Assembly (NCBI GenBank): GCA_903642225.1
Contig: CAHJWI010000011.1
Coordinates: forward strand, 1-64,000
DNA: 64,000 nucleotides
Direction of reading: 5' to 3'
Source of the DNA: Acidobacteriaceae bacterium
GTDB taxonomy: Bacteria; Acidobacteriota; Terriglobia; Terriglobales; Acidobacteriaceae
The notes under the pieces are model-generated. The model was not told where the DNA came from, searched no databases, and was given only the letters and a program-made list of their open reading frames with translations. Below, one piece after another: positions 53,037 through 55,779 of the stretch. A program made the translations under genes and the position numbers. How positions within the stretch are numbered: position 1 is the first letter of the stretch; each line of letters opens with the position of its first letter.

Positions 53037-55779
53037 ATGCCTACCGAACTTTCAAAAGCTTACGAGCCTGCGCTGATCGAAGAAAAATGGGCGACCTACT
53101 GGGTTGCAGAGAAGCTGTTTGACGCGCCTGCGACCGCTGTTGCAGATGCAGCGCCGAAGGCTTTTGTGCAATTGCTGCCGCCGCCGAACGTGACGGGCCG
53201 GCTGCACATGGGGCACATGCTGAACCAGACGGAGATGGATGTGCTGGCGCGGTGGCACCGGATGCGTGGCCAAGAGAGCGTGTGGGTTCCTGGGACGGAC
53301 CATGCCGGGATTGCGACGCAGATGATGGTGGAGAAGCAGCTCCTGGCGGAAGGGTCGTCGCGGAAAGAGGTCGGGCGGGATGCGTTCCTGGAGCGGGTGT
53401 GGCAGTGGAAGGGGCAGTACGGCGGTGCGATTACGGAGCAGATGCGGCGGCTGGGCGCGAGCGTGGACTGGTCGCGCGAATACTTTACGATGTCGCCGGA
53501 GCTGTCGGAGGGCGTGACGGAGGCGTTTGTTCGGCTGTATGAGCAGGGGCTGATTTACCGGGGCAGCTACATCGTGAACTGGGACCCGGTGCAGCAGACG
53601 GCGGTTTCGGACCTTGAGGTGGAGCACAAGGATGTGGCGGGCAAGCTTTACCACGTGCGGTATCCGCTGGCGGATGGGACGGGGTCGATCGTGATTGCGA
53701 CGACGCGGCCGGAGACGATGCTGGGGGATGTGGCGGTCGCCGTCAACCCGTCCGATGAGCGATATGTGGCGATGGTGGGCAAGCTGCTGACGCTGCCTTT
53801 GGTGGGGCGCGAGATTCCTGTGGTGGCGGATGATTGGGCCAAGCCGGAGTTTGGGACGGGCGCTGTGAAGGTGACGCCGGCGCATGATCCGAACGATTAT
53901 GCGATCGGGCAGCGGCATGGGTTGGCGAACCTGACGATCCTGGACGAGATGGCGAACGTTGCCCTGCCGGGGTCGCCGTATGACGGGATGGAGCGGTACG
54001 CGGCGCGGGAGCGGATCGTTGCGGACCTGGACGCGGCGGGGCTGCTGGTGAAGGTCGAGGACCATGCGATGAGCGTGGCGACGTCGCAGCGGAGCGGAGC
54101 CGTGATTGAGCCGCGGCTGAGCCTGCAATGGTTTTTGAAGGTGGAGGGAATGGCGGAGAAGGCCATCGCTGCCGTTGAGGAAGGCCACATCAAGTTTACG
54201 CCGGCGAACTACGCGAAGACGTACTTCGAGTGGATGCGGAACATCCATGACTGGTGCATCTCGCGGCCACTGTCCGCAGTGCGAGACGACGTGCGTGAGC
54301 CGGACGCGGCCGACGCGGTGCGGCAGCTGCGACGGCGCGGAGATGCAGCAGGAGACGGACGTGCTGGACACGTGGTTTTCAAGCGGTTTGCTGCCGGTGA
54401 CGGTGTTCGGATGGCCGAAGCTGCGGCCGGAGTCAGAGAAGTTTTATCCGACGAGCCTGCTGGTAACGGGGTTCGATATTTTGTTCTTCTGGGTGGCACG
54501 GATGATTATGCTGGACACGCACTTTATGCTCGACGTGCCGATGCCGGACGGAAGTGCGCGGCCGCTGAGCGAGGCGGTGCCGTTTCGCGAGGTGTACATT
54601 CACGCGCTGGTGCGGGATGCGGACCGGCAGAAGATGTCGAAGACCAAGGGGAACGTGGTCGATCCGATCAAGATTATTGAGCAGTATGGGACGGATGCGG
54701 TGCGGTTTACGCTGGCGTCGCAGGCGTCGCCGGGGACGGATATTGCGTTTAGCGAGGCTCGGACGGAGGGAAATCGCGCGTTTGCGAACAAAATCTGGAA
54801 TGCAGCGCGGTTTTTGTTTTTGCAGATCGAGCGGGCGCGCGGTGCGGGGTACCGGATGCGCATGGCGCCGGTGGCTGCGGTGGGCGCGCTGCCGGAGATT
54901 ACGCCGGTGGAGACGCGGTGGATTTTCAGTCGGCTGCGCGCGGTGACGGCAGAGATAGATCGTGCGCTGGGGGAGTACCGGTTCGATGAGGCGGCGAGTG
55001 CGATTTACCAGTTCTTCTGGGGCGAGTTCTGCGACTGGTACCTGGAGGTGGTGAAGCTGCGGCTGAACTTTGCGGAGCCGGTGGAGGGTGGGGAGCCGCC
55101 GGTGCAGAACCCGGAGACGGCGATTTCCCTGGCCGGGCTGGTGGGTGTGTTCGAGGCGTCGCTGCGGCTGCTGAGTCCGTTTATGCCGTTTATTACGGAG
55201 GAGATCTGGCATGCGCTGTATGAGGGCGAGCCGCCGTCGAAGTCGATTGCGCTCTCGCGGTACCCGGCTGTCGCGGATTTTCCTGCGGATGCGGCGGCGG
55301 AGGATGCGATCGCGACGCTGCAGGAGGTGATTGTAACGGTGCGCGCGGTGCGCAAGGAGATGGGCGTGCCGGAGAAGGAGGCTGCGCCGGTGATGGTGTT
55401 CGGCGAGAATCGCGTGCTGGCGCTGGTGGATGCGCACCGCGACATGCTGGCGCGGATGGCGCGGGTGAGGGATGTGGAGTTCAGCGCGGAGCCGCTGACG
55501 GGGGCCGCGGCGCGGAATTTGCACACGGCGAGCGGGCCGCTGGATGTGGCGGTGGTGTACGAGCGCGAGGTGGACGTGCCGGCGGAGCGCGAGCGGCTGA
55601 CGAAGGAGATTGCGCGGCTGACGAAGGGGTTGGAAGCGGCGCAGCGGCAGTTGGGCAATGAAGGATTTTTGGCCAAGGCACCGGCAGCGGTGGTGGACGG
55701 TTTGAAGAAGCAGCAGGCGGAGACGCAGGGTCTGTACGACAAAGCGGCAGCCGCGCTGGCTGCACTGTCGGCGGCATAA
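53037..55779 (+). pseudogene. valS: Valyl-tRNA synthetase, disrupted by a deletion-type frameshift
   Basis: The 5' frame (53037 to ~54267) has FVQLLPPPNVTGRLHMGHML (HIGH-type site), the editing domain with TTRPETMLGD and DWAKPEFGTGAVKVTPAHDP and ends NIHDWCISR. From 54268 another frame continues HCPQCETTCVSRT ... DVLDTWFSSGLLP, KMSKTKGN (KMSKS-type), the anticodon domain and a C-terminal coiled coil. Between CISR and HCPQC other ValRS have about 11 residues (LWWGHRIPAW-like); their absence with a leftover C implies a 32-nt deletion. If real, the enzyme lost an active-site segment; a sequencing or assembly error is equally possible. Confidence 0.85.

What the first reader, a model, noticed from the sequence alone, without database searches (positions are those of the whole stretch)
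54241..54300. valS is split by an apparent 32-nt deletion in an otherwise intact gene
Seen: from 53037 the frame gives a full ValRS N-terminal half ending NIHDWCISR, while the rest of the enzyme continues from 54268 in another frame as HCPQCETTC. Known: ValRS normally has about 11 residues (LWWGHRIPAW-type) between these points, part of the catalytic domain. The sequence CGG-C-CAC at the junction is exactly what remains if 32 nt from the second base of the next codon to the end of the Trp codon are lost. Both halves look under selection. valS is essential, so this means an assembly or read error, a second valS elsewhere, or a recent null.
Basis: partly seen in the sequence, partly recalled or inferred. 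Interest (0 to 1): 0.75.

Follow-up and report, generated by a model that had tools for sequence, protein, structure and literature searches.

The report
Assembly slip mimicking a broken gene
A gene that every cell needs appears to lack 32 letters in this draft genome of a soil-type bacterium, most likely because the computer assembly slipped at a spot where other draft genomes also break, so it is probably ordinary.

Summary
valS in this Terriglobus-like draft (3.66 Mb, 62 contigs, 94% complete) reads cleanly from 53037 to 54266 and resumes in another frame at 54268. 32 nt are missing, and with them 11 residues (1GAX 405-415) that sit in one open frame with the N half in 97 of 100 related locus entries; the other 3 are contig fragments. 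Both halves are stop-free and constrained. No second ValRS was found in the assembly, and the missing stretch was not found elsewhere in it. IleRS and LeuRS of this genome keep the equivalent motif, so a working split enzyme is very unlikely.

The best reading is an assembly artefact. At least 8 others of 200 genomes of the class have a frame-split valS (39 re-examined). Four other drafts break within this motif or 5 residues before it: an NN gap, a long N run, a contig end, a contig start. The site ranks 4th of 2761 for exact 21-mers shared between relatives, where assembly graphs would be expected to tangle.

No reads were available, so the artefact is inferred, not shown. A second valS in the unassembled 6%, or a sequenced null, is not excluded. 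Low interest.

The parts
53037..54266 (+). N-terminal half of valS, 410 residues: HIGH-type motif and editing domain, ending ...NIHDWCISR
   Evidence: phmmer to 1GAX 2-404
54266..54268 (+). junction at which 32 nt (11 residues and the frame) are missing
   Evidence: alignment to relatives; segment present in 97 of 100 related locus entries
54267..54680 (+). continuation of the N-half frame out of register, up to its stop; not ValRS sequence
54268..55779 (+). C-terminal half of valS, 503 residues plus stop: KMSKT motif, anticodon-binding and coiled-coil parts
   Evidence: phmmer to 1GAX 417-845
50940..52244 (+). esterase-like frame upstream, close to valS in other relatives too, so this is the native locus
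   Evidence: 24 locus entries including its own; the function name is my reading

Best explanation
The split is an assembly artefact in an otherwise normal, single-copy, functional valS. The motif DWCISRQLWWGHRIPA is nearly invariant in protein and shares unusually many exact DNA words between species, so assembly graphs tangle or break there. In this genome the two flanks were joined without the intervening 32 nt instead of being left as a gap or a contig end. Shown here: the 32-nt loss, no second copy found in the assembly, conservation of the segment, breaks of four other assemblies at the motif, and other frame-split valS genes in drafts of the class. Inferred: that this draft comes from short reads or a metagenome, and that a faulty join made the loss.
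For: Two stop-free, constrained halves with only a 32-nt loss between them (dN 0.15-0.18 against dS 1.1-1.8, five of six dS values computable). No other ValRS. Segment in 97 of 100 related locus entries. Other frame-split valS in 8 genomes, G046, G066, G082, G095, G112, G184, G194, G200, of 200 searched, 39 of which were re-examined; G046, G082 and G112 have no Ns in the fetched stretch, as here. Breaks at this motif: G194 NN, G200 N run, G028 contig end, G063 contig start. Shared exact 21-mers near the site rank 4 of 2761. Literature: low read coverage makes spurious pseudogenes (PMC11017572, passages).
Against: No reads were seen. The sampled stretches of this genome hold no N runs, and they show only a few other split genes, so the assembly is not bad throughout. 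The hotspot P value (0.007) rests on a hand-typed table in which two of the five edges belong to one gap. G028's contig end is not a plain gap, since a second contig of G028 starts upstream at reference residue 308. By mean DNA identity the site is only in the top 8% of the gene (ranks 166-210 of 2750). DNA folding of the site is not unusual.
Confidence: 0.87

Rival explanations
1. The deletion is real and this copy is a recent null; another ValRS gene in the unassembled part of the genome, or on a plasmid not in the assembly, charges tRNA-Val.
For: The assembly is 94% complete, so a second gene could be missing; both halves are undecayed, as for a recent event.
Against: Most relatives in the tables show a single ValRS; in the re-examined genomes the further listed matches at E up to 1e-75 look like IleRS. 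None is in this assembly. It needs two unlikely events.
Confidence: 0.04
2. The deletion is real in the DNA that was sequenced, but only in part of the population or in a dying or mixed culture; most cells carry the intact gene.
For: A draft shows one consensus, and this genome has a few other split genes.
Against: A lethal allele should not become the consensus; the break lies at a motif where other assemblies break.
Confidence: 0.06
3. The split is real and works: two chains, or a translational bypass, make an active ValRS without the 11 residues.
For: Both halves are open and conserved. A synthetase made of separate subunits exists: 'Leucyl-tRNA synthetase subunit alpha' chains are listed.
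Against: The missing residues are in all 97 complete-enough related entries and have counterparts in this genome's IleRS and LeuRS. A frame change alone cannot restore lost residues. No related locus examined shows the same junction as an open arrangement.
Confidence: 0.01

Closest known systems
Spurious pseudogenes from sequencing and assembly (PMC11017572; passages seen)
   Same: A frame-broken gene in a draft that is most likely intact in the organism.
   Different: That study, in the passages seen, ties them to coverage, platform and assembler; here the break falls at a conserved motif where other drafts also break.
Bacterial valyl-tRNA synthetase, TIGR00422 / PRK05729, structure 1GAX
   Same: Both halves are ValRS over almost their whole length.
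   Different: Eleven residues and the reading frame are lost at the junction; neither half alone reaches the curated cut-off.
Two-subunit leucyl-tRNA synthetase (PDB chains named 'subunit alpha'; details recalled)
   Same: Two open pieces of one class I synthetase.
   Different: Here catalytic-domain residues kept in the relatives are missing, not merely divided between two chains.

Membership tests
Functional bacterial valS (TIGR00422) | full-length match over the curated cut-off in one frame | tested here: not met
   two part matches, 566.6 and 364.6 bits, cut-off 612.1
Functional bacterial valS (TIGR00422) | SRQLWWGH[RQ]IPA segment of the catalytic domain | tested here: not met
   absent here; in one frame with the N half in 97 of 100 related entries
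Assembly artefact | no working second copy that would let a real null live | tested here: met
   none found in the 94% complete assembly
Assembly artefact | other assemblies break at the same place | tested here: met
   G194, G200, G028, G063, that is 4 of 26 assemblies with breaks in the hand-typed table
Assembly artefact | reads contain the missing bases | not testable with these tools
   no reads are held
Natural split synthetase | the two pieces together hold all essential residues | tested here: not met
   residues matching 1GAX 405-415 are in neither piece
Pseudogene with a back-up gene | another ValRS gene in the genome | tested here: not met
   about 6% of the genome is unassembled

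The most novel reading that the evidence does not exclude
A living bacterium whose only ValRS really is split and lacks the QLWWGHRIPA(W/Y) segment, working as two complementing chains or through an unknown bypass.
Probability: 0.01. Interest if true: 0.85.

Novelty: not a real feature. Interest (0 to 1): 0.1.

Why it matters
Biologically it most likely does not. Practically it suggests that strongly conserved stretches of essential genes can be break points in draft assemblies, so a broken essential gene in a draft is first a warning about the assembly. If the split were real it would be a striking case of an essential synthetase working without a conserved catalytic-domain segment.

Tried and rejected
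A second valS copy in the assembly: not found. The pattern allowed 2 mismatches, and its fit was not tested on a relative's genome. A natural deletion shared by relatives: rejected. An early regular expression picked wrong matches for about ten distant loci, and the one missed loci on the other strand; one search replaced both.

A strong hairpin as the cause: DNA folds of the site here and in two relatives were no stronger than shuffles (z -0.62, -0.77, -1.22). A repeat-driven deletion: only 1 nt of ambiguity at the junction, so no support. Paper searches for a broken valS and for the IPAW motif gave nothing useful; searches on assembly errors gave listings, and of these only PMC11017572 was opened, for passages.

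Flagged frame switches in this genome that I did not count as split genes on reading their ends: window 45304-45590, L117, L124, L222, L223, L224. The three flagged in the control G003 were not checked against homologues. Of four flanking genes tried for synteny only the upstream esterase-like one recurs near valS; the frames at 52341-52856 and 55812-56846 were found in this genome alone, and 57168-58973 lay outside the fetched loci or had no match. tRNA scans of the window and the 40 sampled stretches found no tRNA-Val; they cover under a quarter of the genome and prove nothing.

Full report
What is there. The window is contig C11:1-64000 of a 3.66 Mb, 62-contig draft (94% complete, contamination 0.23). 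Its best valS matches among named records are Terriglobus and other Acidobacteriaceae. valS starts at 53037 and gives 410 clean ValRS residues to ...NIHDWCISR (54266). That frame then runs on to a stop at 54680, while the enzyme resumes at 54268 in another frame and ends at 55779. In 1GAX the halves match 2-404 and 417-845 (from C-half residue 2), so residues 405-415 are missing. Nucleotide alignment to relatives gives 32 missing bases.

Is it natural? The segment lies in one open frame with the N half in 97 of 100 related locus entries (some records fetched twice); the three misses are contig fragments. In 200 genomes of the class, 192 have a ValRS match at E 1e-85 and 180 have a match over the curated cut-off (its list of places was cut short). 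The sister enzymes in this genome keep the corresponding motif, DWCISRQRIWG in IleRS and DWGVSRQRYWG in LeuRS (identities read by eye). No second ValRS is found, the region occurs once, and a degenerate pattern for the missing stretch has no match in the assembly. Both halves show low dN (0.15-0.18) against high dS (1.1-1.8; one of six values could not be computed), so there is no sign of decay. The upstream esterase-like frame is near valS in other relatives too (24 locus entries including its own), though the other three flanking genes tried are not. This looks like the native gene, and a cell with only this copy should not live; that valS is essential is general knowledge.

Why it is most likely an artefact. 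I looked at how valS fares in other drafts of the class by re-examining 39 of the 200 genomes, chosen because their matches looked partial or split, not for this site. Frame changes inside a contig were found in G046, G066, G082, G095, G112, G184, G194 and G200, so at least 9 of 200 with this one. G095, G194 and G200 have Ns at a break. G046, G082 and G112 have none in the stretch fetched, like this genome. G184 and G066 were not checked for Ns.

Four assemblies break at the motif of this finding. In G194 an NN gap follows the codons for ISR. In G200 a long N run starts inside the WW codons. G028:C698 ends just after ISRQ. G063:C95 starts at HDWCISRQ, a few codons upstream. Against uniform placement, 5 of 47 edges (32 breaks, 26 assemblies) in a 22-residue window has P 0.007; the table was typed by hand, two edges belong to one gap, and G028 has a second contig that overlaps its end, so this is moderate evidence. 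Exact 21-mers shared among 87 aligned relatives (some duplicates) reach 539 pairs near the site, rank 4 of 2761 positions, median 12; for 25-mers and 31-mers the ranks are 23 of 2757 and 22 of 2751. By mean DNA identity the site is less special, ranks 166-210 of 2750. That long exact matches between co-occurring species tangle assembly graphs is general knowledge, not a result here.

Frame breaks elsewhere in this genome. A self-trained coding-signal model flagged 9 suspicious frame switches in 460,463 bases and 3 in another 400,000 bases of this genome; in relatives it flagged 3 in 400,000 (G003), 0 in 260,000 (G014) and 0 in 140,000 (G010). Homologues support five split genes here: valS, a peptidase-like gene (-1 nt), a GH16-like gene, a DUF1569-like gene (+8 nt) and a gene on C4 (-1 nt against 3 of 3 relatives). 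The names other than ValRS are my reading, not from a library call. These four look like accessory genes and could be errors or real pseudogenes. All four lie in the first sample, in which 17 of 20 stretches begin at a contig start.

What I could not do. No reads are held, the record is unnamed, and whether it is a metagenome bin or an isolate is not known. The faulty join is therefore inferred. Papers: passages of PMC11017572 tie spurious pseudogenes to low read coverage; other papers were seen only as listings.

Verdict. The feature is real in the file but most likely not in the organism. Interest is low; the break hotspot is a modest technical point.

Noticed in passing
L251 (G194), L274 (G200), L256 (G028), L273 (G063): Four other draft assemblies break (NN, N run, contig end, contig start) within the conserved valS motif or a few codons from it, a possible assembly hotspot.
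   Followed up: partly
L255 (G046), L244 (G082), L243 (G112), L270 (G184), L240 (G095), L293 (G066): Frame-split valS at other positions in drafts of the class.
   Followed up: partly
L116:4665-6370 (G000 C2): Peptidase-like gene split by a 1-nt loss near 5768; relatives have it in one frame.
   Followed up: partly
L127:17173-19667, - strand (G000 C15): GH16-like gene that changes frame near 17.9 kb; two relatives have one frame of about 740 residues. Indel size not resolved.
   Followed up: partly
L132:15049-15530, - strand (G000 C35): Small DUF1569-like gene split by about 8 extra nt against 3 of 3 relatives.
   Followed up: partly
L118:5744-6343, - strand (G000 C4): Gene with two frame switches within a few hundred bases; one fits a 1-nt loss against 3 of 3 relatives.
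   Followed up: partly
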